DNA from: Gallionella sp.
GTDB lineage: Bacteria; Pseudomonadota; Gammaproteobacteria; Burkholderiales; Gallionellaceae
Length of the DNA: 36,321 nt
Direction: 5' to 3'
Assembly: GCA_024641025.1 (NCBI GenBank)
Contig: JAHEDW010000022.1
Span: 1-36,321, forward strand
Part shown: positions 1-12,232 of the stretch, in pieces
Position numbering within the stretch: the first letter of the stretch is position 1
How the letters are laid out: each line of letters opens with the position of its first letter
The notes under the pieces: model-generated
What the model saw: only the letters and a program-made list of their open reading frames with translations
Database searches by the model: none
Told to the model about the DNA's origin: nothing
Program-made: the position numbers and the translations under genes

Positions 1-1
1 G

Positions 2-352
2 AAAACTGGTAAAGTTGATCCAACTACGCCCCCGGCCAAACCTGCCACTCCTCCAGCTGGCAAGCCTGCGGCGCAAGGCGATCCTGCAAAGATCGCCGTG
101 GTGCAGATATTGACCGGTGCGAATGCAGGCAAGGAACTCGAGTTGGTAAAGAACCTGACCACTTTGGGTAAGCCAGGCTTGCAGGTTGCGGTCCTTACCC
201 GGCGCCCGCAAGGTTTCTTTATCACCCATGTCGAGGGAGCAAAATTCCCATTAGTGAACGGCCAGACACTCACAAATCAGGCATATCAACTGAAGGATCA
301 TGACGTGATCGAACTGGCAGGCATCAAAATGGAATTCTATTTCAAGGGTTAA
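2..352 (+). CDS. FHA-domain protein, C-terminal part (5' end outside window)
   Basis: The reading frame is open from the first complete codon, so only the C-terminal ~116 residues are visible. They begin with a low-complexity Pro/Ala/Lys linker (about residues 1-32), followed by a compact beta-rich domain. That domain has the spacing of a forkhead-associated fold: a glycine-rich first strand (LTGANAGKELEL), an LTTLGKPG turn where canonical FHA domains have the phosphopeptide-binding Gly-Arg, an HVEG turn, and an NG pair before a final strand. FHA domains usually read phosphothreonine. Here the turn is GKPG, not GRxx, so binding is uncertain. A cyclase gene follows 261 bp downstream, and a Ser/Thr kinase lies about 10 kb away, so a role in the same phospho-signalling is an inference. 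The internal GTG codons at 98 and 101 are not needed as starts. Confidence 0.7.
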   Translation, partial: KTGKVDPTTPPAKPATPPAGKPAAQGDPAKIAVVQILTGANAGKELELVKNLTTLGKPGLQVAVLTRRPQGFFITHVEGAKFPLVNGQTLTNQAYQLKDHDVIELAGIKMEFYFKG

Positions 353-613
353 CGGGTGGCAGTAGACGCTGTTGTGGTCGCTGCGCCGAGCCTGATCATA
401 TTCACAGCAATTCTGCAAAATTGCCTTACCGTGACCCTTGGGCAATCCTGCTGTCATTACTGCCGACCTTCAGACGCGTGAATCATCCAATGAGAAGATC
501 ATCGCTCTGACCCGGCCTGGCAAAGTCGGTGTTCAGTCCATGTGGTATTGCAAACCATCACACCACAAAGATACGGTGGCAGCATTCATGACAATGTCAA
601 TTAAGGGAGATGC
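353..613. other. Intergenic region before the cyclase, possible FHA-like remnant
   Basis: No convincing complete gene is present. One forward frame is open from about 435 to 615 without a good start. Its stretch LTRPGKVGVQ (507-536) resembles LTTLGKPGLQ of the FHA protein just upstream. This may be the decayed end of a related domain or chance. A short palindrome TGACAATGTCA occurs at 588-598. I see no strong promoter. Confidence 0.3.
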
Positions 614-2836
614 GTGAAGAAGAACGCGATATTGATCGGACTTGGTTTGCTGATCGTCCTTTTTTTTGTCGGCAATGCCGCGCACTTCTACCGTCTGGGA
701 TTTATCGATCGTCTCTCAGAAAATCTTTACGATTACAGCATGCGATTGACAATGCCGCAAACAGTGGATCAGCGCATCGTCATTCTGGATATAGACGAAA
801 AAAGCCTCAAGGAAGAAGGGCGTTGGCCATGGGGGCGAGATCGCATGGCCATGCTGATGGACAAGTTGTTCGATAAACACGAAGTTGCAGTAGTGGGTTT
901 CGATGTGGTCTTTGCCGAAAAGGATGACAGTTCTGGGCTTAAGGTATTACAGGCGCTGGCGCAACACCAACTCAGGGATGATCCTCAATATCGCGCTGTC
1001 CTGAGCCAGATCCAGCCTCAGCTCGAATACGACAAAATGTTCGCCGACAAGATCGCTGGCCGCAAGGTGGTACTTGGGTATTACTTTACAGACCAGAAAA
1101 ACACACGCATCTCTGGAGAACTTCCCGAGCCGATTTTAAGGGCAGGTTCATTCAAGGGGCACACAAAAGGCTTTGCTTCCTGGAATGGCTATGGAGCCAA
1201 TCTTGCCGAGTTGCAGCAAGCAGCGAGTGGTGCAGGCCACTTTAATCCCATGATCGACTTTGACGGGTTGGTAAGGCGTGTACCGATGCTGTCTGAGTAT
1301 AACGGGGCTTATTATGAGCCCCTTTCCCTTGCGGTGGTGCGTACCCTGCTGGGGAGGACCGAATTGCAGCCAGGATTTGTCGAAGCCAAGCAAGGAGGAT
1401 ATGCCAGGCTCGAGTGGCTGGAGTTGCGCACGGCCAATGGCTCATTGAAAATCCCGGTGGATGATGATTTGGCGACCTATATTCCCTACCGCGGAAGACA
1501 AGGGAGTTTTCCTTATATCTCCATCGCAGATGTGTTGCATGACCGAGTCGCAACGTCACAATTGAAGGATAAGATCGTGCTGGTTGGCACAACTGCACCA
1601 GGTTTGATGGATATGCGCGCCACACCGGTGGCTGAGGTTTATCCAGGGGTAGAAGTCCACGCAAACATGATTTCCGGGATACTGGATCAGAACTTGAAAG
1701 AACGGCCAGCATACATGTTGGGCGCAGAAGTGGTTTGGTTGCTGCTGATCGGTATTACCATGAGCATCTTACTGCCCCAGTTGAACCCGGCCAACGCGAT
1801 CATCGTCTCGGGTTTCTTCTTTGCCGGTACGGCAGGGATGAGCCTAGCCTCCTGGCAATACGGGGACATATTGATGCCAATGGCGAACAGCCTGGTGATG
1901 ATTGCCTTGATATTCGCGTTGGACATGTCCTATGGTTACTTCGTCGAATCACGCACCAAGCGTCTGATTACCGGGTTGTTCGGCCAATATGTGCCGAACG
2001 AGTTGGTCGAGGAAATGGCTCAGCATCCTGAGCGCGTCTCCCTGGCAGGCGAGAGCCGCGAAATGACCATCCTGTTCTCCGATGTGCGCGACTTCACCTC
2101 CATATCCGAAGGGCTGGACCCGAAGGAATTGGCGTCAATGATGCATGAGTTCTTGACCCCATTGTCTCGAGTGATATACAAACATCGCGGTACTATCGAT
2201 AAGTATATGGGCGACTGCATCATGGCTTTTTGGGGAGCACCCTTGCCAGATAAGGGTCATGCCCATCATGCGTTACAGGCAAGTATCGAGATGCAACAGG
2301 AAATGGCGCGATTGCGGCCGCACTTTAAAGCGCGCGGCTGGCCGGAGATACATGTTGGAATCGGCATCAACACAGGAAATGTCAACGTTGGCAACATGGG
2401 TTCTGAATTGCGCGTAGCCTATACTGTGATGGGGGACGAAGTTAACCTGGCATCACGGCTTGAAGGAATCACTAAGCAATACGGTGTGGAAATCATCATC
2501 GGTGAAAACACCCGTAATGCTGCCAAGGACTTTATCTATCGTGAACTTGACCATGTGCGGGTAAAAGGTAAAGATAAGCCCGTGGCGATATACGAACCGA
2601 TAGGTCTTGCCGAAAATGTGAGCAGCGCAAAGCATGACGAGATCAAGCTGTTTCATGAGGTGCGTCGCTTGTATCGCAAGCAGGACTGGGACCAGGCAGA
2701 ATTGCAGTTGATGAATCTGCAGCGCATTTCACCTGATACCCCGTTGTATCAAACCTATGTCAGTCGCATTGCCTATTTTCGAAAAAACCCGCAGGCTGCG
2801 GATTGGGATGGTGTATTCGTATTCGATACAAAGTAG
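614..2836 (+). CDS. CHASE2-domain class III adenylate cyclase
   Basis: Membrane-bound cyclase of 740 residues that should make cAMP from ATP. Segment order: an N-terminal membrane helix (about 5-24), a large periplasmic CHASE2 sensor (about 30-345, with the typical VILDIDEKSLKEEGRWPW region), three closely packed membrane helices (about 368-440), a short linker (FGQYVPNELVEEM), and a class III catalytic domain (about 480-655). Both metal-binding aspartates are present (FSDVRDF near 489 and GDCIMAFWGAP near 533). So are the Lys of DKYMGD and the Asp of VMGDEVN that favour adenine, and the Asn/Arg of VNLASRLE. The catalytic set therefore looks intact. The start is GTG, four bases after AAGGGAG; the ATG at 610 is in another frame. 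The phosphodiesterase gene follows after 21 bp, so the two are probably co-transcribed. The ligand sensed by CHASE2 is unknown. Confidence 0.93.
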   Translation: MKKNAILIGLGLLIVLFFVGNAAHFYRLGFIDRLSENLYDYSMRLTMPQTVDQRIVILDIDEKSLKEEGRWPWGRDRMAMLMDKLFDKHEVAVVGFDVVFAEKDDSSGLKVLQALAQHQLRDDPQYRAVLSQIQPQLEYDKMFADKIAGRKVVLGYYFTDQKNTRISGELPEPILRAGSFKGHTKGFASWNGYGANLAELQQAASGAGHFNPMIDFDGLVRRVPMLSEYNGAYYEPLSLAVVRTLLGRTELQPGFVEAKQGGYARLEWLELRTANGSLKIPVDDDLATYIPYRGRQGSFPYISIADVLHDRVATSQLKDKIVLVGTTAPGLMDMRATPVAEVYPGVEVHANMISGILDQNLKERPAYMLGAEVVWLLLIGITMSILLPQLNPANAIIVSGFFFAGTAGMSLASWQYGDILMPMANSLVMIALIFALDMSYGYFVESRTKRLITGLFGQYVPNELVEEMAQHPERVSLAGESREMTILFSDVRDFTSISEGLDPKELASMMHEFLTPLSRVIYKHRGTIDKYMGDCIMAFWGAPLPDKGHAHHALQASIEMQQEMARLRPHFKARGWPEIHVGIGINTGNVNVGNMGSELRVAYTVMGDEVNLASRLEGITKQYGVEIIIGENTRNAAKDFIYRELDHVRVKGKDKPVAIYEPIGLAENVSSAKHDEIKLFHEVRRLYRKQDWDQAELQLMNLQRISPDTPLYQTYVSRIAYFRKNPQAADWDGVFVFDTK

Positions 2837-2857
2837 CAAAACAGGATTACAGGACTT

Positions 2858-3622
2858 ATGAAATTAAGAGTGTTGGGATGCAGTGGTGGAATCGGTGGCG
2901 ATCTGCGCACCACTTCGTTCCTGCTCGATCAGGACGTCCTGATCGATGCGGGGACCGGAGTGAGTGAACTTACCTTGGATGAATTGTGTGCTATCGACCA
3001 TATCTTTGTTACGCATTCGCACCTTGACCATATCGCCTGCATACCAATGTTGCTCGACAGCGTTTGGACAATGCGAGATCGCCCGATAACGATATATGCG
3101 ATTGACGAAACGCTGGAAATGCTCAAGCAGCATATCTTTAACTGGAAGATTTGGCCCGATTTCAGTGAAATACCAAGCGCACTTCAGCCATCGATGATTT
3201 ACCAGCAGATCGAATTGGGCAAGACGGTGGAGTTGGGTGGGCGCAGTATCACTGCGGTACCGGCCAATCATGTCGTGCCTGCGGTCGGTTACCATCTGGA
3301 CAGTGGCGCAGCGAGCTTGGTTTTTACCGGGGACACTACGACCAATGATGCACTATGGAAGGTGGTCAACGAAATCGATAATTTACGCTACCTTATCATT
3401 GAGTCAGCTTTCTCTAACAGTGAGCGTGAACTAGCGGTGCTTTCCAAGCATCTATGTCCAAGTATGCTCTCGGTGGAATTGGCCAAGTTCAAGCTCAAGG
3501 CAGAAGTATTCATCACGCACCTCAAGCCCGGTGAACTGGAGTTAACCATGCGGGAGATCGAGGAGGATGTTCCCGGTATCCGGCCAAAGATGCTGCTGAA
3601 CAATCAAGTGTTCGATTTATAG
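2858..3622 (+). CDS. Metallo-beta-lactamase-fold 3',5'-cyclic-nucleotide phosphodiesterase
   Basis: A 254-residue cytoplasmic protein of the metallo-beta-lactamase fold, most like class II (PDE1/CpdP-type) cyclic-nucleotide phosphodiesterases. The metal-binding motif THSHLDH is at about 52-58 (His53, His55, Asp57, His58). Further ligands are at FTGD (Asp159) and in THLKP (His221). The N-terminal LGCSGGIGG and LIDAG strands are typical. It sits 21 bp after the adenylate cyclase on the same strand, so the pair would make and destroy cAMP under common control. That pairing is the main reason for preferring cAMP over an RNA or other phosphodiester substrate. RNase Z and arylsulfatase-like relatives cannot be fully excluded from sequence alone. 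Confidence 0.82.
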   Translation: MKLRVLGCSGGIGGDLRTTSFLLDQDVLIDAGTGVSELTLDELCAIDHIFVTHSHLDHIACIPMLLDSVWTMRDRPITIYAIDETLEMLKQHIFNWKIWPDFSEIPSALQPSMIYQQIELGKTVELGGRSITAVPANHVVPAVGYHLDSGAASLVFTGDTTTNDALWKVVNEIDNLRYLIIESAFSNSERELAVLSKHLCPSMLSVELAKFKLKAEVFITHLKPGELELTMREIEEDVPGIRPKMLLNNQVFDL

Positions 3623-3656
3623 TGGCGCATATTCTGCATCCTCGTAAATTTTTTGT

Positions 3657-3675
3657 CAGTTCAGTTTTTGAACTG
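3657..3675. other. Hairpin between phosphodiesterase and ATPase genes
   Basis: A perfect 7-bp inverted repeat CAGTTCA/TGAACTG with a GTTTT loop. It has no T-run on its 3' side, so it is not a clear intrinsic terminator in the forward direction. It could be a protein site or an mRNA processing hairpin in the 166-bp gap. Confidence 0.4.
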
Positions 3676-3788
3676 GTGTGTGAGTTAATCAAGGCGCATT
3701 GTCGGCGAGAGGTTGGTCCAGTAAGGCACACAAGCCGGATGGATGATTGGAAATCCTTGAGGTTAGATGAGATAGGCGGGAGTAAGAG

Positions 3789-6191
3789 ATGAGTACAGTA
3801 ATGGCAACCAAGGGTGCGGTTGGTAATTCCGCAGAAATGAACATCAAGCTCGAGTTCAATAAGAACCTTAATCAAGTTACCAACAAGATCCACGCAACTG
3901 GCAATGTGGAAGAAATCATGCTGGATGTCAGCAAGGACATCTGTGCCTTGTTTAATGCAGACCGCATGACTATTTATGTAGTCGGCGACGACAACATTTC
4001 GCTCGTTTCCAAAGTCAAGACCGGACTAAACTCATTCAAGGATCTGAAGTTGCCTATCGCCGAGCAAAGCATCGCTGGTTATGTGGCGATGAAGAAAAGG
4101 CTGCTTAACATCAAAGATGTTTACGATGAAAAGGAATTGGCCACCATTAGTCCGCACTTGCGTTTTTTGCAGGAGGTGGACAAGCGCACCGGTTACCGTA
4201 CCAAGCAAATGCTTGTCGTTCCTGTAGTGGATGCCACCAGCAACGACCTGATCGGCGTGATACAGGTCATAAACAACAAGGCTGGTGTACCTTTTGCCTC
4301 CTCAATCGAGGAGGGAGCGAAGGAACTTTCGCAAACCATGGCAGTAGCGTTGCGCCAACGGCTGCAAACCACAACGGCCAAAACAAAATATGATTACCTG
4401 GTTGCCGACGCGGTACTTTCAGCGGCGGAATTTGAATTGGCTACGCGAACAGCAAGGCGCAAAGGGATCGACATCGAAGATGTGCTGATAGATGAATTTC
4501 AGGTCAGTAACGCTGCCTTGGGTAAGGCCTTGTCCACTTTCTTCGGGGTTCCTTATGAACCCTTTAGGGGGGACCGCGTCAAGCCGGCAGAGTTGTTGCG
4601 CAACTTGAGGCGTGAGTATGTCAAAAGCGGTCATTGGCTTCCGATAGACGAGAACCAGGATGGGCTGATGATATTGACCACTGACCCGGAACGGATCCAG
4701 GCCTCGCGTGTGGTGAACAACATCTTCCCCAAGAGCAGGCTTAACTACCTGGTTTGCTCACAGCGTGAGTTCAACCAATACCTTGATTTGTTCTATGGTG
4801 GGAAATCTTCTGCGGATGCTACTGGCATTTTTGCAGCGGATGATTCGTCAGTGGACGAACTACTGACCAATCTTGGCGGAGACGAGGAAGATATCTCCAG
4901 CATCAGCCAGGAGGATGTCAGCGCGGCAGCAGACAATGAACTGGTCAAACTGGTCAACAAGATCATCGTTGATGCATACCGGATGGGTGCTTCTGACATA
5001 CATGTAGAACCTGGGCCAGGCAAGATGAAGACCCAGATCCGGGTTCGCAAGGACGGCTCGCTGCTGAATTACATCGAGGTTCCATCGACTTACCGTAATG
5101 CGCTAGTGACACGCCTCAAGATTATGTGCGATCTGGATATATCCGAGAAACGCAGACCCCAGGACGGCAAGATAAAGTTCAAGAAATTCGGTCCGCTGGA
5201 TATCGAACTTCGTGTGGCGACAATCCCTTCGCAGGGTGGCGTGGAAGACGTGGTGATGCGTATCCTGGCCTCAGGTGAGCCATTGCCGCTCGAGAAGATG
5301 GGCTTCTCCGCAAGAAACAATGAATTGATCCAGGCTACAGTCAGCAAACCCTACGGCTTGTTCTTCGTATGCGGCCCGACCGGTTCAGGTAAGACCACCA
5401 CGCTGCACTCCATTCTCAAGTTCATCAACAAGCCCGAAACCAAGATCTGGACAGCGGAAGACCCTGTGGAGATCACCCAGAAGGGATTACGCCAGGTGCA
5501 AATCAACAAAAAGGCCGGCCTTGACTTTGCCACCATCATGCGTGCATTCCTGCGTGCCGATCCTGACGTGATCATGGTCGGTGAGATGCGCGACAAGGAG
5601 ACGGTTTCTATAGGTATCGAGGCATCCCTGACCGGTCACCTGGTTTTTGCAACACTGCACACCAACAGCGCCCCGGAATCCATCATCCGCCTGCTGGACA
5701 TGGGCATGGACCCGTTCAACTTCTCCGATGCGCTGCTGGGCATACTTGCACAGCGTCTGGCGAAACGCCTGTGTCCAGACTGCAAGAAACCACATGTCGC
5801 GACAAGCGAGGAGATCAAGGCGCTGCTTACCGAATACAGCTCGGAACTGACCAACACCGTTTCCTGGAAGAAAGACCCTGCAGCGGAAATGAAGGCACTT
5901 TATACAGAATGGGGAAAATTGTATGCAAACAAACAGGGACAATTCACTCTTTATACACCGGTAGGTTGCGAGAAATGCACGGGAACTGGTTATCGCGGGC
6001 GGGTCGGCCTGCACGAGTTGCTGATTGGTTCAGATCCGGTAAAGAAAGCCATCCAGGAGCATGCACGCGTCGCTGAACTACTGGCAATCGCCCTGGACGA
6101 AGGGATGCACACGTTGAAACAGGACGGTATGGAAAAGGTGCTGCAGGGTATCACTGACATGCATCAAGTGCGTGCTGTTTGCATCAAGTAA
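3789..6191 (+). CDS. GspE/PilB-type secretion ATPase with N-terminal GAF domain
   Basis: An 800-residue cytoplasmic hexameric ATPase of the type II secretion/type IV pilus assembly family, with an extra sensor. Residues about 20-195 form a GAF domain (VVPVVDATSNDLIGVIQVIN core). Residues about 205-340 form a GspE N-terminal (MshEN-like) domain, starting with a degenerate R-x-K-G...VLIDEFQVS...LGKALS element. From about 385 onward comes the motor: Walker A GPTGSGKTTT (529-538), Walker B with VIMVGEMRD, the His box GHLVFATLHTN, and the zinc tetracysteine CPDC (662) with CEKC (727). The normal PilB/GspE length is 500-580, so the GAF domain explains most of the excess. The SD is GGGAGTAAG. No pilC or pilD lies nearby, so the partner machine is uncertain. 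A pilin gene and an HD-GYP protein follow, which suggests signal-gated pilus assembly. What the GAF domain binds is unknown. Confidence 0.9.
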   Translation: MSTVMATKGAVGNSAEMNIKLEFNKNLNQVTNKIHATGNVEEIMLDVSKDICALFNADRMTIYVVGDDNISLVSKVKTGLNSFKDLKLPIAEQSIAGYVAMKKRLLNIKDVYDEKELATISPHLRFLQEVDKRTGYRTKQMLVVPVVDATSNDLIGVIQVINNKAGVPFASSIEEGAKELSQTMAVALRQRLQTTTAKTKYDYLVADAVLSAAEFELATRTARRKGIDIEDVLIDEFQVSNAALGKALSTFFGVPYEPFRGDRVKPAELLRNLRREYVKSGHWLPIDENQDGLMILTTDPERIQASRVVNNIFPKSRLNYLVCSQREFNQYLDLFYGGKSSADATGIFAADDSSVDELLTNLGGDEEDISSISQEDVSAAADNELVKLVNKIIVDAYRMGASDIHVEPGPGKMKTQIRVRKDGSLLNYIEVPSTYRNALVTRLKIMCDLDISEKRRPQDGKIKFKKFGPLDIELRVATIPSQGGVEDVVMRILASGEPLPLEKMGFSARNNELIQATVSKPYGLFFVCGPTGSGKTTTLHSILKFINKPETKIWTAEDPVEITQKGLRQVQINKKAGLDFATIMRAFLRADPDVIMVGEMRDKETVSIGIEASLTGHLVFATLHTNSAPESIIRLLDMGMDPFNFSDALLGILAQRLAKRLCPDCKKPHVATSEEIKALLTEYSSELTNTVSWKKDPAAEMKALYTEWGKLYANKQGQFTLYTPVGCEKCTGTGYRGRVGLHELLIGSDPVKKAIQEHARVAELLAIALDEGMHTLKQDGMEKVLQGITDMHQVRAVCIK

Positions 6192-6207
6192 ATTCCAGAG
6201 CTTGCTT

Positions 6208-7836
6208 ATGCAATCTTCAGATTATCTGTTGCATCGTCTCAAGGAACTCAACGAGGTCGGTATAGCGCTGTCCCGACAGCACGACATCAATAGTCTGCTT
6301 GAGACCATACTGGTCGCAGCAAAACGCTTTACCAATGCTGATGCAGGGACGCTTTATCTGCATGAACCTGAACAGCAACTGCTTCGTTTCGAGATCTTGC
6401 GTAACGATACGCTAAATACTGTCATGGGTGGCACCAGTGGTGTGCCGATCAGCTTCTATCCGATCCGTCTGTACAGTGAAGCAGGGAAGCCCAATCATGC
6501 CATGGTTGTGAGCCACGCGGCTTTGACCGGCGAGACGATAAACATTCCTGACGCATACATTGCACAGGGCTTCGATTTTTCCGGTACGAAGAATTTCGAT
6601 AGCAAGACAGGCTATCGTTCGCATTCTTTCCTGACCGTACCGATGCTGAATCATGAAGATGAAGTCATCGGCGTGCTCCAACTCATCAATGCCAAAGACC
6701 GGAACAGCGGAAAGATCGTGGAGTTTTCTGCGGATGACCAGCAGATGCTGGAGTCGCTTGCATCACAAGCTGCAATCGCACTGACCAATCGTCGCCTCAT
6801 CGGTCAGCTGGAATCTTTGTTCGAGTCCTTTATCCAACTGATAAATACAGCGATCGATGACAAATCGTCTTATACCGGCGGGCATTGTGCCCGCGTTCCG
6901 GCCCTTACCATGATGCTCGCCGAGGCTGCCAACCGCACCCAGCAGGGGCCGCTGAAGGATTTCGTGATGACTGACACGGATCGGAAGGAGCTCCGGATCG
7001 CAGGATTGCTGCATGACTGCGGGAAAATCACCACCCCGGTGCATGTGGTGGACAAGGCGACCAAGCTGCAGACCCTGTTCGACCGTATCCATATGCTGGA
7101 TACTCGTTTCGAAATTCTCAAGCGTGATTCGGAAATAAACATGTTGCGGAAGTTGGCTGAAGCAGGTGGTGATGCGCATCGTGTCGATTCGGCAAGACAG
7201 GAACATGAAGCGCGAATCGCGCAACTGGATCAGGACCGTGAATTTCTGCGACATTGCAACGTCGGTGGTGAGGCTATGTCAGTCGAGGAGCAGCAGCGAA
7301 TACACCAGATCGCGGCATATAGATGGCAAGGCATTGAAGGATTGGAATGCAATTTCCTCAGCGAGGATGAGTTAGAGAACCTGACCATCAGATCCGGTAC
7401 GCTGACCGCAGCCGAGCGCGAGACCATCAACCATCACATCGATGTCACGATAAAGATGCTGGAATCCCTGCCGTGGCCTAAGCACCTCAAGAATGTTCCG
7501 GAATATGCCGGCGGGCATCATGAGCGGATGGATGGTCAGGGTTACCCGCGCGGACTATTGCGCGATCAAATGTCGGTTCAGGCAAGGATCATGGGCATCG
7601 CGGATATTTTCGAGGCGCTCACCGCCAAGGATAGGCCATACAAAAAGGGCAAGACCCTGACCGAATCCTTGACTATCCTGGGAAAATTCAAACTGAATGG
7701 GCATATCGATCCTGACCTGTTCGACATCTTTATCCGAGAAAAGGTGTATCTAGACTATGCGGGTCAGTTCCTTCCCGCCGAGCAGGTCGACGATGTCGAC
7801 CTGGACAAAATTCCTGGTGTCAGTTCCAGGGCGTAA
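6208..7836 (+). CDS. GAF/HD-GYP cyclic-di-GMP phosphodiesterase
   Basis: A 542-residue soluble protein with an N-terminal GAF domain (about 20-200, core FLTVPMLNHEDEVIGVLQLIN) and an HD-GYP domain predicted to hydrolyse c-di-GMP. The HD pair is in LLHDCGKI (His269, Asp270), followed by INHHID, then GGHHERMDGQGYPRG with His437-His438 and the GYP at 445-447. About 130 charged, probably helical residues are inserted between the HD motif and the next His pair, so the domain is longer than a minimal HD-GYP. I chose the ATG at 6208, 17 bp after the ATPase stop. A GTG at 6172 in the same frame would overlap the ATPase by 20 bp and add 12 residues with no better SD. Tight coupling to a GAF-ATPase suggests both act on the same pilus or secretion process. 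Confidence 0.9.
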   Translation: MQSSDYLLHRLKELNEVGIALSRQHDINSLLETILVAAKRFTNADAGTLYLHEPEQQLLRFEILRNDTLNTVMGGTSGVPISFYPIRLYSEAGKPNHAMVVSHAALTGETINIPDAYIAQGFDFSGTKNFDSKTGYRSHSFLTVPMLNHEDEVIGVLQLINAKDRNSGKIVEFSADDQQMLESLASQAAIALTNRRLIGQLESLFESFIQLINTAIDDKSSYTGGHCARVPALTMMLAEAANRTQQGPLKDFVMTDTDRKELRIAGLLHDCGKITTPVHVVDKATKLQTLFDRIHMLDTRFEILKRDSEINMLRKLAEAGGDAHRVDSARQEHEARIAQLDQDREFLRHCNVGGEAMSVEEQQRIHQIAAYRWQGIEGLECNFLSEDELENLTIRSGTLTAAERETINHHIDVTIKMLESLPWPKHLKNVPEYAGGHHERMDGQGYPRGLLRDQMSVQARIMGIADIFEALTAKDRPYKKGKTLTESLTILGKFKLNGHIDPDLFDIFIREKVYLDYAGQFLPAEQVDDVDLDKIPGVSSRA

Positions 7837-8196
7837 CGATGGTTCGTTTGCATTCACCGTTGGTGTTGCTGCCAAACCCGGTTCTTCCATAATGCACTTT
7901 CAATCGCCGTCATACTGACAAAAATCGTCAGTCGACTGCCAGTTTTGGTCTGATTATCGAAGGAATTTATTGCGCATGTACGATGGTAGGTGCCATTTCA
8001 ATTTGTGTTCGTCTTGAATTTGAAATGCGATGCTATGGTAATAGACATAATAAAACAATAAGTTATAAAAATAATTTCATGCGAAAAATTAATTTGTCCC
8101 GGTAACCTGCGAGCAACTGGCATTTTTGGCACGGCTATTGCTCCCTATTACATCGACACACACCAAGTGTGTTTAATATTACACAAGGAGCTTTAC
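7837..8196 (+). promoter_or_regulatory. Upstream region of the pilin gene with inverted repeat
   Basis: 360 bp without a gene, AT-rich between about 8035 and 8100. A perfect inverted repeat ACTGAC-N7-GTCAGT lies at 7914-7932, about 195 bp before the sigma-54 core, a typical enhancer distance for a PilR-like activator. Assignment to PilR is inference. A second, weaker inverted repeat (ATTTCAA ... TTGAAAT) lies near 7995-8027. Confidence 0.4.
8127..8142 (+). promoter_or_regulatory. Sigma-54 promoter of the pilin gene
   Basis: TGGCAC-N5-TTGCT matches the -24/-12 consensus exactly, with the GG and GC doublets 10 bp apart. Transcription should start near 8153, giving a UTR of about 44 bases before the pilin ATG. 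Type IV pilin genes are classically RpoN/PilR controlled. Confidence 0.88.
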
Positions 8197-8718
8197 ATGA
8201 AGAACATACAAAAAGGTTTCACGCTGATCGAATTGATGATCGTGGTTGCGATCATCGGTATCCTGGCTGCTGTTGCGATTCCTGCTTACGGCGACTATAC
8301 CGCACGTGCCCAAGCTGCTGAAGCATTTACACTGATGGACGGTTTCAAGACACCGCTGACCGAACTTTATACATCCTCAGGCGCTTTCCTAATCGATGAT
8401 GGTACCGCTGGCGTTAAAGGTATCACCTCTGGTAAATATGTTGCATCTGTCGGCACTGGTGATGGTACGACCGGCCAAGCTTTCAGCGTTGTTTCACAAT
8501 TTGGTACGACTGGCGTGAGCGGCAAGATACAGGGCCTGTTCGTGCATATGTACTACAATCCTAACGACGGTAGCTGGTCCTGTGCGAACGGTGATGGTTC
8601 CTCAGACGACGCAACTGCTATTGTTGACGTTGTTTCTGGTACTCCTGCTGCAGGTGTGTTGGCTGTTGCTGGCGCGAACCCAATCCCAGCAAACATTTTG
8701 CCTAAGGCTTGCGCTTAA
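8197..8718 (+). CDS. pilA: Type IV major pilin
   Basis: A 173-residue prepilin. The short basic leader ends in Gly7 and is cut before Phe8 by a prepilin peptidase, giving a mature N-terminus [20 protein letters not shown] with the essential Glu5. This helix forms the pilus core, and the rest is a globular head. Two cysteines near the C-terminus (in SCANG and KACA) fit the D-region disulfide of type IVa pilins. The start is the ATG at 8197, eight bases after AAGGAG; an upstream in-frame start at 8167 would put 10 extra residues before the leader and is rejected. A sigma-54 promoter precedes it and a strong terminator follows, so it is transcribed alone. Proximity to the GAF-ATPase suggests that motor may polymerise it, but a separate pilB elsewhere is possible. 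Confidence 0.93.
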
Positions 8719-8745
8719 TACTGCCTGAGCTTACTTAAGGTAAAT

Positions 8746-8771
8746 AAAAGCCCCTCGCAAGAGGGGCTTTT
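8746..8771. terminator. Bidirectional intrinsic terminator, pilA / bepA
   Basis: A perfect 11-bp stem AAAAGCCCCTC/GAGGGGCTTTT with a GCAA tetraloop, followed by TT. The mirrored A/T tracts let it work in both directions, ending pilA from the left and the convergent bepA from the right. Confidence 0.93.
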
Positions 8772-8795
8772 TTATTGGGTTTGAGATGTTGGTTT

Positions 8796-10232
8796 CTACG
8801 GTTTGGTGCGCGCATCCAGCATTTCACGCAATTCGCGCAAGTCACTCTCGACCGTTGAGAGCTGGTAAAAACTTCCACCCGCCTGTTTCGCCAATTCGAG
8901 CTGCTCGAGTGCTGCATACAGCTTGCCCTGCCAGGCGTAGCTGTAGGCAAGCGCCTTATGTTGCTCAAGTACCTTGCCTTGCTTTGCGTAGGCCCTGGCT
9001 TGCAGGTCGTAGAGCGTGGTGTCACTTGGGTGCCGGATGATCTGTGTGCCGAGAAGTTTTACCGCAGTTTCAGACTGGCCGCTCTGGATCAGCAAGTCGG
9101 CGTAGTCATAAATCAGGGCGCGATGCTGCGGGAAGTTCTGAACCGCGGTTTCATAGAACGCGAGGGTCGCCGCGGGATTGTTTTCAGCGCGTTTCACCTG
9201 TCCCGAGAGGGTTTCTATCATTGCGTTATATCTAAGGTTCAGGGAGGAGTTGGTCAGTTTGCGCAAGGTATCCAGTTCCTGAGCTGCTCGGCCGACTTCG
9301 TTGTTGTGCAATAGCGAACCCACCAGTCCGTAGCGTTGCGCGATCGGATTGCCGTGTTTTTGTGAACCCAGGGCATCGCTGAAATAGGTGATTGCGTCCG
9401 CAGGGGTCTTTTGCGAAGCGATCAGCTTGGTGCGCACGAGTTGAAAATCCAGGCTGTCCGGTATCAGGCGATAAGGTAGCTTCTGTACCCGATTTTCAAT
9501 GTCTGCGACCCGATCGGTCGTGATCGGGTGGGTACGCAGATAGTTCGGTGCATTGTTGTCCAGCAAGCGCGTGGCTTTTTGTAGACGATCCAGGAATTCT
9601 GGCATCGCGTGGATATTCAAGTTCGACTTTTGCAATATATCGAGCCCGATCCGATCCGCTTCCTGTTCGTTTGCGCGCGTGAAATCGAGCTGTCTTTGGA
9701 TCGAACGTGCCTGCACGCTGGCGATCGCAGCTTCAGTCACTTGAGGACTGGTGCGGGCGGCGAGTATTGCGACGGCGAGTGCTGCCATCGACGCCAGGCC
9801 TTCGCCTTGTTGCCCCGCAATCATGCGTGCCAGATGGTGCTGGGTCACGTGAGCGATCTCGTGGCTCAACACGGCGGCCAATTCAGATTCGCTTTGTACA
9901 GTCAGCAACAAGCCACTGTTCACGCCGATATATCCTCCGGGCATCGCAAACGCATTGATACTAAGGTCGTTTATCGCGAAGAACTCGAAGCCCAGGCCTG
10001 GCTCGGTGCTGTTCTCAACCAGTTTGCCGCCGAGTTGGTTGAGGTAGTCATTGATCTCGGGGTCATCCAGGAACTGTTTGCTGGCACGAATCTCCATCAT
10101 GCTCTGCTGTCCGATCTGGCGTTCCTGCAACGGTGTCAAGACGATTTGAGAGGCATCCCCAAGATCGGGGAGACCATCGCCCAGTGCGTAAGGTGAAAAG
10201 CACAGCAGCACCGCCAGAGTCAGTTTTTTCAT
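8796..10232 (-). CDS. bepA: Periplasmic M48 metalloprotease/chaperone with TPRs (BepA/YfgC type)
   Basis: A 478-residue exported protein matching BepA in layout and length (487 in E. coli). It starts with a signal peptide MKKLTLAVLLCFSPYALG, then an M48 zinc protease domain with HEIAH (124-128) and the third ligand Glu in NEQEADRIG, and a C-terminal half of TPR-like helices (about 300-478). BepA-type proteins help fold or degrade beta-barrel proteins such as LptD at the BAM complex. I chose the ATG at 10232 because it puts the signal peptide at the N-terminus; an in-frame GTG at 10259 adds nine residues. The gene is convergent with pilA and divergent from the kinase gene. Confidence 0.9.
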   Translation of the reverse strand: MKKLTLAVLLCFSPYALGDGLPDLGDASQIVLTPLQERQIGQQSMMEIRASKQFLDDPEINDYLNQLGGKLVENSTEPGLGFEFFAINDLSINAFAMPGGYIGVNSGLLLTVQSESELAAVLSHEIAHVTQHHLARMIAGQQGEGLASMAALAVAILAARTSPQVTEAAIASVQARSIQRQLDFTRANEQEADRIGLDILQKSNLNIHAMPEFLDRLQKATRLLDNNAPNYLRTHPITTDRVADIENRVQKLPYRLIPDSLDFQLVRTKLIASQKTPADAITYFSDALGSQKHGNPIAQRYGLVGSLLHNNEVGRAAQELDTLRKLTNSSLNLRYNAMIETLSGQVKRAENNPAATLAFYETAVQNFPQHRALIYDYADLLIQSGQSETAVKLLGTQIIRHPSDTTLYDLQARAYAKQGKVLEQHKALAYSYAWQGKLYAALEQLELAKQAGGSFYQLSTVESDLRELREMLDARTKP

Positions 10233-10366
10233 GGTTACTATGATAGTTGTTTTTACCACAGGTTCACATCGTATCCCTGTTTATGGCGCTTCAGGTGTGA
10301 TTCCATATAGACAGCACGCGGCAAAGTGCTCAGAATTGAGCTGTTTAACATCATGCAGCCAGGAAA

Positions 10367-11665
10367 ATGAAAAAAATCGGGAAATATGAAGTCGTGCGTG
10401 AGCTCGGTAGCGGTGCAACAAGCACCGTATATCTGGCGACCGACGAATTCAAGAAGGAGCAGGTCGCAATCAAAGTGTTCGACCTGAAGATACTGAAAGA
10501 TCCCAGCCGGGAAAAGATCTTTCGCAAGCTGTTGATGACTGAAGCATCGCTGGCTGGAAAATTATCCCATCCACACATCGTAAAAATCCTCGATGCCGTG
10601 ATGGAAGGTGATATCAATTACATGGTGATGGAATACGTCGAAGGCGAAACATTGGAGAAGTACGCCGAGGTAGACCATCTGTTGCCGATCAGTACCATCG
10701 CCGAAATCATTTACAAGTGCTGCAAAGCCCTTGAGTACGCACAGCACCAGGGCGTGATACATCGTGACATCAAGCCTGCCAATATCCTGTTCCTGGGCGA
10801 ATCCGATATCAAGATCTTCGATTTCGGCGCAGCCGCACTGCAGACCAACCAGAGCACGCAAGTTTCAGGGGTGGGTTCTCCGGCCTATATGTCACCGGAG
10901 CAAGTCATGGAGCATCCGCTGACGCATCAGACCGACATCTATTCCGTCGGAGTGGTGATGTACAAGCTGCTCACCGGGAAATTGCCCTTCGATGCAAGCA
11001 ACAACTACAGCATGATTTACCACATCATCAACATCGAGCCGCCTCCGCCGAGTTCCTTTCGACCTGAAATGCCGCCTGAACTGGACAGGATCGTGCGCCG
11101 TGCGATGGCAAAGGATACGGCAAAGCGTTACCAGCAGTGGGAGGAGTTCTCGAATGACCTCGTCAAATTCTTCAGTGATGTTGTCCCGTCACAAACAGAG
11201 ATATTCGATACCGAAAAATTCGATACCCTCCGAAGCCTTGCATTCTTCAAGAGTTTCAGCGATGTCGAACTTTGGGAAGTTCTGCGTACAAACGAGTGGC
11301 GCAAGGTGCCGGAAGGCGAATACATACTCCGAGACGGTGAAAAAGGAAGGATCTTTTACATCATTGCGCAAGGCACGGTTCGCGTTGTCAAGCAAGGCAG
11401 GTTGTTGAGCCTATTGCATCGCGGAGATTGTTTTGGAGAAATGGCGCACATTTTGGAGCAGCAATTCAAGCGTAGTACAGACGTGATCGCAAAAAACGAT
11501 GTGATCCTGATCGAAATCAATCCAGATATGCTTGCACATGCAACGACAGGCTGCCGCTTCCAGTTCAGCGAGGCGTTCCTGCGCATGCTGGTGAAACGGT
11601 TGTCGGTCGCAAACACGCGTATCTCATTATTATTGGCAGACCAGAGCCAAGCCGAACAGGAATAG
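10367..11665 (+). CDS. Ser/Thr protein kinase fused to a cyclic-nucleotide-binding domain
   Basis: A 432-residue soluble protein. Residues 7-265 are a Hanks-type kinase: glycine loop LGSGATSTV, catalytic Lys36 (VAIK), HRDIKPAN (Asp134), DFG (Asp152), and SPAYMSPEQ in the activation segment. Residues about 285-420 form a cyclic-nucleotide-binding domain, with the phosphate-binding cassette starting FGEMA (356) and the phosphate-contacting Arg in FKRST (369). No membrane helix is visible, unlike many bacterial Ser/Thr kinases. The likely ligand is cAMP, since a cyclase and a cyclic-nucleotide phosphodiesterase lie 8 kb upstream; cGMP cannot be excluded. The layout is reminiscent of eukaryotic PKG with the domain order reversed. 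SD AGGA precedes the ATG. It heads a tight cluster with the rhodanese (4-bp gap) and the TusA-like gene. The substrates are unknown. Confidence 0.92.
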   Translation: MKKIGKYEVVRELGSGATSTVYLATDEFKKEQVAIKVFDLKILKDPSREKIFRKLLMTEASLAGKLSHPHIVKILDAVMEGDINYMVMEYVEGETLEKYAEVDHLLPISTIAEIIYKCCKALEYAQHQGVIHRDIKPANILFLGESDIKIFDFGAAALQTNQSTQVSGVGSPAYMSPEQVMEHPLTHQTDIYSVGVVMYKLLTGKLPFDASNNYSMIYHIINIEPPPPSSFRPEMPPELDRIVRRAMAKDTAKRYQQWEEFSNDLVKFFSDVVPSQTEIFDTEKFDTLRSLAFFKSFSDVELWEVLRTNEWRKVPEGEYILRDGEKGRIFYIIAQGTVRVVKQGRLLSLLHRGDCFGEMAHILEQQFKRSTDVIAKNDVILIEINPDMLAHATTGCRFQFSEAFLRMLVKRLSVANTRISLLLADQSQAEQE

Positions 11666-11669
11666 AAAT

Positions 11670-12005
11670 ATGCCAGGAATCATGACCAACAGTGGTTACA
11701 GGAATATCTCCATCGACGAACTGCAGTCGATGATGCAGCAAGGAGGCGTGCTCTTGCTTGACGTTCGCACCGATGCCGAAGTTGCCCGGGGAATGATTCC
11801 ACAGGGCATGTCACTGCCTTTGCATTTGCTGCCGTTGAAATTGCACGAGATGGACAAGAATGCCATTACTGTTTTCTATTGCCAGACAGGTGGTCGTTCC
11901 GGGCAGGCTGCCGCTTTCGCCGCTGCGAACGGGTTTGTCGAAGCCTACAACGTTCAGGGCGGTATCTTTGCTTGGGCGAATGCTGGTTTGCCGATCGCGA
12001 CATGA
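11670..12005 (+). CDS. Single-domain rhodanese-like sulfurtransferase
   Basis: A 111-residue single rhodanese domain. It has LLLDVRTDAEV, a buried strand (ITVFYCQTGGRS) carrying the active-site Cys in CQTGGRS, and a C-terminal NVQGGIFAWANAGLP typical of the family. It would carry sulfur as a cysteine persulfide in the cytoplasm. It starts 4 bp after the kinase stop and overlaps the next gene as ATGA, so the three are one transcript. An in-frame ATG at 11682 is an alternative start. Its pairing with a TusA-like protein suggests a small sulfur relay. Confidence 0.88.
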   Translation: MPGIMTNSGYRNISIDELQSMMQQGGVLLLDVRTDAEVARGMIPQGMSLPLHLLPLKLHEMDKNAITVFYCQTGGRSGQAAAFAAANGFVEAYNVQGGIFAWANAGLPIAT

Positions 12006-12232
12006 ACGAATTCGATGCAGAACTTGATGCGCGTCAGCTCGCCTGCCCGCTACCCATTCTGAGAGCCAAGAAATCCCTCTCACAGATGAACAGCGGCCAA
12101 TTGCTCAGGATAGTCGCAACTGACAAGGGTGCGCCAAACGACTTCGATGAGTTTTGTCGAAAGACTGGCAATGACCTGCTGTCTTCAACGGTACAGGATG
12201 GGGAATTCGTTTTCCTGATCCGTCGACGCTAG
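12002..12232 (+). CDS. TusA-like sulfur carrier protein
   Basis: A 76-residue protein of the TusA/SirA/YeeD family. The N-terminal motif LACPLPILRAKKSL contains the persulfide-bearing Cys in CPLP, and the rest fits the two-layer alpha/beta fold. The start ATG overlaps the rhodanese stop. TusA-type carriers accept sulfur from a sulfurtransferase such as a rhodanese and pass it to tRNA thiolation, cofactor synthesis or sulfur oxidation; nothing here decides which. The coding sequence ends 3 bp before the convergent valS end, with no room for a separate terminator. Confidence 0.88.
   Translation: MNEFDAELDARQLACPLPILRAKKSLSQMNSGQLLRIVATDKGAPNDFDEFCRKTGNDLLSSTVQDGEFVFLIRRR

What the first reader, a model, noticed from the sequence alone, without database searches (positions are those of the whole stretch)
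2..12005. A compact cAMP - Ser/Thr kinase - FHA circuit around a pilus-type motor and pilin
Within 12 kb the window carries a CHASE2 adenylate cyclase, a cyclic-nucleotide phosphodiesterase of the metallo-beta-lactamase fold, a soluble Ser/Thr kinase with its own cyclic-nucleotide-binding domain, and an FHA domain protein that could read the phosphorylation. Interleaved are a GAF-bearing GspE/PilB ATPase, a GAF/HD-GYP c-di-GMP phosphodiesterase and a sigma-54 pilin. This suggests that an external signal sets cAMP, cAMP sets kinase activity, and phosphorylation plus c-di-GMP gate pilus or secretion activity. Domains are seen; the circuit is inferred.
Basis: partly seen in the sequence, partly recalled or inferred. 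Interest (0 to 1): 0.72.

Follow-up and report, generated by a model that had tools for sequence, protein, structure and literature searches.

The report
Conserved cAMP-and-kinase pilus motor cassette
In a Gallionella-like bacterium, and in the same order in many of its relatives, genes that make and destroy the messenger cAMP sit beside a pilus motor that carries a cAMP-type sensor domain, together with protein-phosphorylation genes, suggesting that cAMP acts on the motor directly, which these computations cannot prove.

Summary
The domains are real, and the genes form one conserved cassette, not a chance cluster. The window starts inside it: a contig of the same genome overlaps window 1-145 and carries the missing front. 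The full order is CHASE2-Ser/Thr kinase, PP2C phosphatase, FHA protein, CHASE2-adenylate cyclase, class-II cAMP phosphodiesterase, GAF-MshEN-PilB motor, GAF-HD-GYP, sigma-54 pilin.

In 137 non-redundant loci the core pairs keep strand and order (PDE-PilB 119 of 121, AC-PDE 104 of 104, PilB-HD-GYP 100 of 100).

The FHA protein's likely kinase is the off-window CHASE2 kinase, not the cNMP-binding kinase. The latter is a looser, optional unit, missing from a congener. The motor's GAF is nearest in sequence to cyclic-nucleotide GAFs (best solved relative: cAMP-binding CyaB2, 3.9e-24). It keeps CyaB2's cAMP contacts but has lost K and D of the NKFDE motif. Its MshEN domain lacks the c-di-GMP motif that another motor of the same genome has.

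Best reading: cAMP acts directly on an additional type IV pilus motor, with a phosphorylation switch in parallel. Ligand binding and function are untested. Ten searches of the held library listed no description of it.

The parts
2..352 (+). C-terminal part of the FHA protein (N-terminal FHA sequence off-window on contig C26 = L093, frame 9132-9761)
614..2836 (+). CHASE2-adenylate cyclase; D490, D534, K530, T604, N611, R615 identical in 41 of 41 sequences
2858..3622 (+). class-II type cyclic-nucleotide phosphodiesterase (metallo-beta-lactamase fold; H53, H55, D57, H58, H138, D159, H221 invariant in 33 of 33)
3789..6191 (+). GAF-MshEN-PilB type motor ATPase; Walker A invariant in 37 of 37; GAF nearest in sequence to CyaB2/PDE GAFs
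6172..7836 (+). GAF-HD-GYP c-di-GMP phosphodiesterase; LHDCGK in 43 of 43; H449, H450, E451, D454, G455, G457, Y458 in 43 of 43 and P459 in 40 of 43; start codon uncertain (GTG 6172 overlaps the motor gene)
8127..8142 (+). sigma-54 (-24/-12) promoter element TGGCACG-N4-TTGCT
8197..8718 (+). type IV pilin PilA (ATG 8197 preferred over the upstream GTG 8167); one of 2 Pilin-family matches in the genome
8746..8771 (.). terminator-like hairpin between pilin and BepA (the scan lists it on the - strand)
10367..11665 (+). Ser/Thr kinase with C-terminal cyclic-nucleotide-binding domain (second, looser unit); G357, E358, R369 identical in 30 of 30
11670..12005 (+). rhodanese gene next to the kinase, here and in many relatives
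12008..12232 (+). TusA-like gene next to the kinase, here and in many relatives
8796..10259 (-). BepA-type M48 protease; flanking, neighbour of the kinase in many relatives, not proposed as part of the circuit

Best explanation
The region is one signalling-and-motor cassette. Shown here: gene content, order, conservation and intact catalytic residues. Inferred: everything about ligands and flow.

A membrane CHASE2 sensor drives a class-III adenylate cyclase, and a class-II phosphodiesterase removes the cAMP. cAMP is read directly by the GAF domain at the N terminus of an additional PilB-type type IV pilus motor (inferred). It may also be read by the GAF domain of the HD-GYP enzyme, so that local c-di-GMP is destroyed when cAMP is high (inferred, weaker).

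In parallel a CHASE2 Ser/Thr kinase and a PP2C phosphatase, encoded just upstream, set the phosphorylation of a target that the FHA protein binds (inferred), probably to recruit or gate the motor complex.

The separate kinase with a cyclic-nucleotide-binding domain is a further, optional receptor that links the two arms in species that have it. The output is assembly of pili, for which the linked sigma-54 pilin is the likely subunit.
For: Co-occurrence over 150 genomes: PilB-AC OR 20.6, PilB-HD-GYP OR 33.6, PilB-kinase OR 26.9; p 1.8e-5, 1.8e-5 and 5.9e-7 after collapsing to 51 families. PilQ over cut-off in 68 of 70 GAF-motor genomes.

PDE and HD-GYP are fused in one frame in L048.

Motor GAF: best solved relative is the CyaB2 cyclase (1ykd), 3.9e-24. 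19 of the 20 chains with E up to 0.0011 are cyclases or cyclic-nucleotide phosphodiesterases, one is an HD-GYP protein; PtsP follows at 0.0058. CyaB2 contacts R291, T293, I308, D356, N359 (passages of PMC4411481) correspond to R59 (37 of 37), T61 (T 36, S 1), V76 (V 31, I 6), D131 (37), T134 (T 36, S 1).

PDE: best solved relative is 4ojv, 3',5'-cyclic-nucleotide phosphodiesterase 1, at 3.6e-12.

A protein with cNMP-binding and rhodanese domains lies between PDE and motor in 45 of 119 non-redundant loci.
Against: The NKFDE motif of cyclic-nucleotide GAFs is only partly kept in the motor: N and F in 37 of 37, but K at its position in 0 of 37 (the next residue is K or R in 27) and D in 0 of 37. 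Each NKFDE residue was needed for cGMP binding in PDE2 GAFb (passage of PMC11977230). The N359 position of CyaB2 is T in the motor.

By fold alone the GAF is about as close to PtsP (Z 19.7) as to PDE2A (20.7) and closer than to CyaB2 (16.2); fold does not decide.

14 of 70 GAF-motor genomes have no cyclase match at E 1e-90. Some loci keep only PDE-PilB (L052, L053, L068, L069), and AC-PDE pairs occur without this motor beside them (L076, L077, L086-L088). The own genome has 5 cyclase-domain matches and 10 cNMP-binding matches, so cAMP need not be private.

In 8 of 13 distant loci with a related motor no cassette partner was seen nearby.

Whether this motor works with the linked pilin is not shown; the HD-GYP-PilA order could be scored in only 27 loci (25 in order).
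Confidence: 0.5

Rival explanations
1. One reading: cAMP activates the cNMP-binding kinase, which phosphorylates the target read by the FHA protein; the motor is gated only through phosphorylation and c-di-GMP.
For: The kinase keeps G357, E358 and R369 of the phosphate-binding cassette in 30 of 30. It co-occurs with the motor (48 of 54 kinase genomes). Of 48 genomes with both, 20 have them on one contig, 16 of these within 45 kb.
Against: FHA is preceded by its own CHASE2 kinase and PP2C phosphatase. No full-length kinase match in 22 of 70 motor genomes, including a congener. In 28 of 48 genomes it is on another contig of mostly draft assemblies. The MshEN c-di-GMP motif is missing in the motor.
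Confidence: 0.15
2. The GAF domain of the motor is a structural or dimerisation relic that binds nothing or another ligand; the genes are linked because cAMP and phosphorylation control pilus gene expression or another envelope process.
For: K and D of NKFDE are in 0 of 37 sequences. PtsP GAFs are as close by fold as PDE GAFs. The genome has 9 other cNMP-binding matches that could serve as receptors.
Against: Contact positions R59, T61, V/I76, D131 and T134 are nearly invariant across 37 motors, hard to explain for a relic. PDE-PilB is kept even where the cyclase is not beside it.
Confidence: 0.25
3. The ATPase is not a pilus motor but drives another type II or pseudopilus-like machine regulated by the cassette.
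For: It falls below NCBIfam cut-offs for both PilB (485.4 of 675.65 bits) and GspE (439.8 of 630.25). Among the 20 window proteins scanned with Pfam there is no PilC or PilM-Q; not every window frame was scanned.
Against: The best-scoring NCBIfam model is PilB. 68 of 70 genomes with it have PilQ over cut-off, against 59 of 80 without it. A sigma-54 type IV pilin lies near in many loci.
Confidence: 0.1

Closest known systems
Vibrio cholerae MshE / MshEN motors
   Same: PilB-family motor with an N-terminal second-messenger domain; the 197-336 segment has the MshEN fold (Z 13.9 to 5htl)
   Different: The c-di-GMP motif RLGxxL..G....L...L..Q (given in passages of PMC10519070 and PMC12943098) is missing (5 of 11 fixed positions in the window motor, 4 to 7 in 37 sequences); a GAF domain is added in front
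Anabaena CyaB2 tandem GAF adenylyl cyclase and mammalian PDE2/5/10 GAFs
   Same: Nearest GAFs by sequence; cAMP-contact positions kept
   Different: The output is a pilus motor, not a cyclase or phosphodiesterase; K and D of NKFDE lost
PpkA-PppA-Fha threonine phosphorylation pathway of type VI secretion (recalled)
   Same: Ser/Thr kinase, PP2C phosphatase and FHA protein encoded side by side
   Different: The kinase's sensor is CHASE2 and the neighbours are cAMP and pilus-motor genes; type VI genes were not searched for
Pseudomonas CyaB-Vfr control of type IV pili (recalled)
   Same: cAMP and type IV pili linked
   Different: There cAMP acts through a transcription factor; here the candidate receptor is part of the motor itself
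PmGH GAF-HD-GYP (4mcw; Persephonella, PMC12943098 passage)
   Same: GAF plus HD-GYP; also the top structural match of the motor's GAF
   Different: Here the GAF-HD-GYP is co-encoded with a motor, cyclase and PDE

Membership tests
Class IIIb adenylate cyclase | two metal Asp, Lys plus Thr for adenine, Asn-Arg pair (criteria recalled) | tested here: met
   D490, D534, K530, T604, N611, R615 in 41 of 41
Class II cyclic-nucleotide phosphodiesterase | PDEase_II profile over cut-off and HxHxDH | tested here: met
   48.9 bits, cut-off 23.7, best stretch over profile positions 83-145 of 340; H53, H55, D57, H58 in 33 of 33; best solved relative 4ojv
Class II cyclic-nucleotide phosphodiesterase | NCBIfam cyclic nucleotide-degrading phosphodiesterase equivalog cut-off (NF041851) | tested here: not met
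   40.6 bits, cut-off 400; it is not that equivalog
Class II cyclic-nucleotide phosphodiesterase | hydrolysis of cAMP or cGMP | not testable with these tools
   needs an assay
Cyclic-nucleotide-binding GAF | sequence closest to CyaB/PDE GAFs | tested here: met
   1ykd 3.9e-24; PtsP GAF only at 0.0058
Cyclic-nucleotide-binding GAF | complete NKFDE motif | tested here: not met
   N and F in 37 of 37; K and D in 0 of 37
Cyclic-nucleotide-binding GAF | CyaB2 cAMP-contact residues | tested here: met
   R59, T61, V76, D131 kept or similar; the N359 position is T134
Cyclic-nucleotide-binding GAF | binding of cAMP or cGMP | not testable with these tools
   needs an assay
c-di-GMP-binding MshEN motor | two copies of RLGxxL(V/I)xxG..xxxxLxxxLxxQ | tested here: not met
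   at most 5 of 11 in the window motor; another motor of this genome (L095) scores 10 and 8 of 11
cNMP-binding kinase | Gly-Glu and Arg of the phosphate-binding cassette; active kinase motifs (criteria recalled) | tested here: met
   G357, E358, R369, K36, D134, D152 in 30 of 30
Type IVa pilus assembly ATPase PilB | NCBIfam PilB equivalog cut-off | tested here: not met
   485.4 bits, cut-off 675.65; a PilB relative, not filed as canonical PilB
FHA domain protein | FHA domain over cut-off | tested here: met
   ortholog L062 74.0 bits, cut-off 20.7; own N-terminus reads GRKAHND...SGEHA...DSTNG but was not itself scanned; window part alone below cut-off
Type VI PpkA-PppA-Fha pathway | located with type VI secretion genes | not tested
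   no type VI profile was searched

The most novel reading that the evidence does not exclude
A type IV pilus motor that is itself an allosteric cAMP receptor: the CHASE2 cyclase and class-II PDE form a private cAMP pool that switches an additional PilB motor through its GAF domain, while a CHASE2 kinase-PP2C-FHA relay and a GAF-HD-GYP enzyme add phosphothreonine and c-di-GMP inputs. One genome would thus run one motor on c-di-GMP (L095) and another on cAMP.
Probability: 0.38. Interest if true: 0.78.

Novelty: new variant of a known kind. Interest (0 to 1): 0.62.

Why it matters
Second-messenger control of pilus motors is described for c-di-GMP, through MshEN (passages read), and cAMP control of type IV pili is known as transcriptional (recalled). 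A motor with a cAMP-type GAF, encoded with the enzymes that make and destroy cAMP and with a kinase-phosphatase-FHA set, would be a direct cAMP route to surface filaments. The motor occurs in 70 of 150 sampled genomes of the order, with named relatives in Gallionella, Sideroxydans, Azospira, Propionivibrio, Accumulibacter and Nitrosomonas, so it is general rather than a local oddity and can be tested in cultured species.

Tried and rejected
Rejected: that the cNMP kinase is the core of the circuit (no full-length match in G115 and 21 other motor genomes of 70). Rejected: c-di-GMP control of this motor through MshEN. Tried without a decision: fold comparison to separate cNMP GAFs from PtsP GAFs. 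Tried: wider distribution. Of 398 genomes of the phylum, 41 (own included) match the motor's N-terminus. Of 13 loci fetched from other classes or from another family of the class, HD-GYP is near in 5 (L217, L219, L220, L223, L228) and cyclase in 2 of these (L217, L223); in the other 8 no cassette partner was seen. L227, of the same order, keeps PP2C-FHA-PDE-PilB-PilA. Foldseek of the kinase model: the 50 rows shown are kinase matches, so the cNMP domain rests on Pfam and residues.

Limits: the 60 loci were chosen because they held PDE or motor matches, and the 80 named loci are the best 80 of 573 PDE relatives, so pair counts are conditional on that. Three of the 80 duplicate loci of the 60; the counts with duplicates are, without. 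Co-occurrence uses thresholds (E 1e-30 PDE, 1e-25 motor, 1e-90 AC, 1e-80 HD-GYP; for the kinase the listed matches at 1e-80 or better, one of them, G006, a fragment). The PDE set includes distant relatives down to 34 % identity. Genomes are related; the family-level test only softens this. Shuffles were single-base.

Literature: ten searches; no title or abstract start listed describes this cassette. I read passages only of PMC7690835, PMC12943098, PMC10519070, PMC11139211, PMC4411481, PMC11977230. PDE2A contact positions used as a side check were recalled and are not used as evidence.
Full report
WHAT IS THERE. The window is G000:C14:1-36321, from a 2.5 Mb draft genome. Its PDE has its best named matches in Gallionella (up to 78 % identity), so the host is most likely of the Gallionellaceae (inference). 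Contig C26 (L093) of the same genome overlaps window 1-145 with one mismatch. It carries, in the same direction, a universal stress protein, an 843-residue CHASE2-Ser/Thr kinase, a PP2C phosphatase and the N-terminal FHA sequence.

THE CASSETTE. I searched 150 genomes of the order with the kinase, PDE, motor N-terminus, cyclase and HD-GYP. I fetched 60 neighbourhoods and 80 named loci, 137 after removal of 3 duplicates. The order CHASE2 kinase - PP2C - FHA - cyclase - PDE - motor - HD-GYP - pilin recurs. Of loci where both members were found, same strand and order hold for STK-PP2C 82 of 87, PP2C-FHA 91 of 91, FHA-AC 71 of 75, FHA-PDE 93 of 93, AC-PDE 104 of 104, PDE-PilB 119 of 121, PilB-HD-GYP 100 of 100 and HD-GYP-PilA 25 of 27. 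Reduced forms exist: PDE-PilB alone (L052, L053, L068, L069) and AC-PDE without this motor (L076, L077, L086-L088). In L048 PDE and HD-GYP form one reading frame. Searches give the same open-frame length for both in G105 (797), which I did not fetch.

CO-OCCURRENCE. In 150 genomes at the thresholds used: motor 70, cyclase 69, HD-GYP 70, PDE 94, full-length cNMP kinase 54, PilQ over cut-off 127. Motor with cyclase 56 of 70, with HD-GYP 59 of 70, with PDE 64 of 70, with kinase 48 of 70, with PilQ 68 of 70 (the exceptions, G030 and G048, have a weak or split PilQ match). Collapsed to 51 families the associations of the motor with cyclase, HD-GYP and kinase stay (p 1.8e-5, 1.8e-5 and 5.9e-7), though relatedness is not fully removed.

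THE SECOND UNIT. The kinase with a cNMP-binding domain sits beside BepA, rhodanese or TusA in many relatives. Of 48 genomes with kinase and motor, 16 have them within 45 kb, 4 on one contig but farther apart, and 28 on different contigs of mostly draft assemblies. In G115, of the same genus, BepA, rhodanese and TusA are adjacent with no kinase between. There the CHASE2 kinase, PP2C, FHA, PDE, motor, HD-GYP and two pilins stay together, while the cyclase ortholog (50 % identity) is on another contig. The cNMP kinase is thus associated but optional.

ENZYMES LOOK ACTIVE. Cyclase: metal, base-selecting and transition-state residues (roles recalled) in 41 of 41. PDE: HxHxDH, H138, D159 and H221 in 33 of 33, best solved relative 4ojv, 3',5'-cyclic-nucleotide phosphodiesterase 1. 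HD-GYP: LHDCGK and H449, H450, E451, D454, G455, G457, Y458 in 43 of 43, P459 in 40. CHASE2 kinase: VAIK lysine, HRD and DFG aspartates in 32 of 32; PP2C aspartates D25, D40, D207, D247 in 45 of 45. cNMP kinase: K36, D134, D152 and cassette residues G357, E358, R369 in 30 of 30.

THE MOTOR'S SENSOR. Against all solved chains the motor's GAF matches CyaB2 adenylate cyclase best (3.9e-24). Of the 20 chains at E up to 0.0011, 19 are cyclases or cyclic-nucleotide phosphodiesterases and one is an HD-GYP protein (4mcw); PtsP follows at 0.0058. CyaB2's cAMP contacts (R291, T293, I308, D356, N359; passages of PMC4411481) map, on the alignments, to R59, T61, V76, D131 and T134: R 37, T 36, V or I 37, D 37 and T 36 of 37 motors. 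Against this, of the NKFDE motif only N and F are fully kept; K and D are in 0 of 37, and the motif was needed in PDE2 and PDE5 (passage of PMC11977230). Fold comparison puts PtsP and PDE GAFs level. The HD-GYP's GAF is also nearest to PDE5 and CyaB2 but has G or A, not Arg, at the R291 position in 43 of 43, so its ligand is more open.

NO c-di-GMP MOTIF. The motor keeps an MshEN fold (Z 13.9 to MshE). Scored on 11 fixed positions of the published motif it reaches 5 in the window and 4 to 7 in 37 sequences. The 572-residue motor at L095 of the same genome scores 10 and 8 in two successive copies. The genome thus holds one motor with the c-di-GMP motif and one with a cAMP-type GAF.

EXTRA RECEPTOR. 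In 45 of 119 non-redundant loci a relative of the L033 protein with cNMP-binding and rhodanese domains (75.0 and 55.3 bits in L033; the others by similarity to it) lies between PDE and motor. The window lacks it (PDE ends 3622, motor starts 3789). A rhodanese also adjoins the cNMP kinase. This recurrence of cNMP-binding domains around the PDE and motor supports cAMP or cGMP as the common ligand.

PILIN. The pilin's exact sigma-54 element is conserved upstream of pilins of related loci (62 of 69 at 2 or fewer mismatches, against 15 of 1380 shuffles). The pilin is one of two Pilin-family matches in the genome.

MECHANISM. Shown: composition, order, conservation, intact sites. Inferred: CHASE2 signal to cAMP; cAMP to the motor's GAF; kinase-PP2C-FHA as a parallel gate; HD-GYP as a cAMP-to-c-di-GMP bridge; cNMP kinase as an optional link.

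NOVELTY. Each part is of a known kind; the combination, and a CyaB2-type GAF on a pilus motor, I did not find in ten literature searches of the held library (listed under Tried and rejected), which lacks most subscription papers. I file it as a new variant of a known kind.

Noticed in passing
L035:13404-15564: In a genome of the same genus BepA, rhodanese and TusA are adjacent and the cNMP kinase gene is absent between them: a natural presence/absence site.
   Followed up: partly
L048:6968-9385: PDE and HD-GYP fused in one reading frame (family f14); G105 of the same family shows the same open-frame length for both in the search tables.
   Followed up: partly
L033:7784-8857 and 44 other non-redundant loci: A cNMP-binding plus rhodanese protein inserted between PDE and motor; why rhodanese keeps company with cNMP domains here is unexplained.
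   Followed up: partly
window:6172-7836: The HD-GYP seems to have a long insert between its HD and GYP halves (roughly residues 300-410), by my reading of the sequence only.
   Followed up: no
L056:12944-14437: An O-antigen-ligase-like (Wzy_C) gene follows the pilin here, with relatives near the pilin in several loci: a possible pilin glycosyltransferase.
   Followed up: no
L062:16957-17798 and L075:11949-12763: SoxZ- and SoxY-like genes (named from the sequence by recall) lie between the cassette and the kinase unit in two relatives.
   Followed up: no
L217, L223: In another class a motor 39-40 % alike lies near an HD-GYP 56-58 % alike and a CHASE2-cyclase relative (36-45 %) in a different arrangement, hinting at an old link.
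   Followed up: partly
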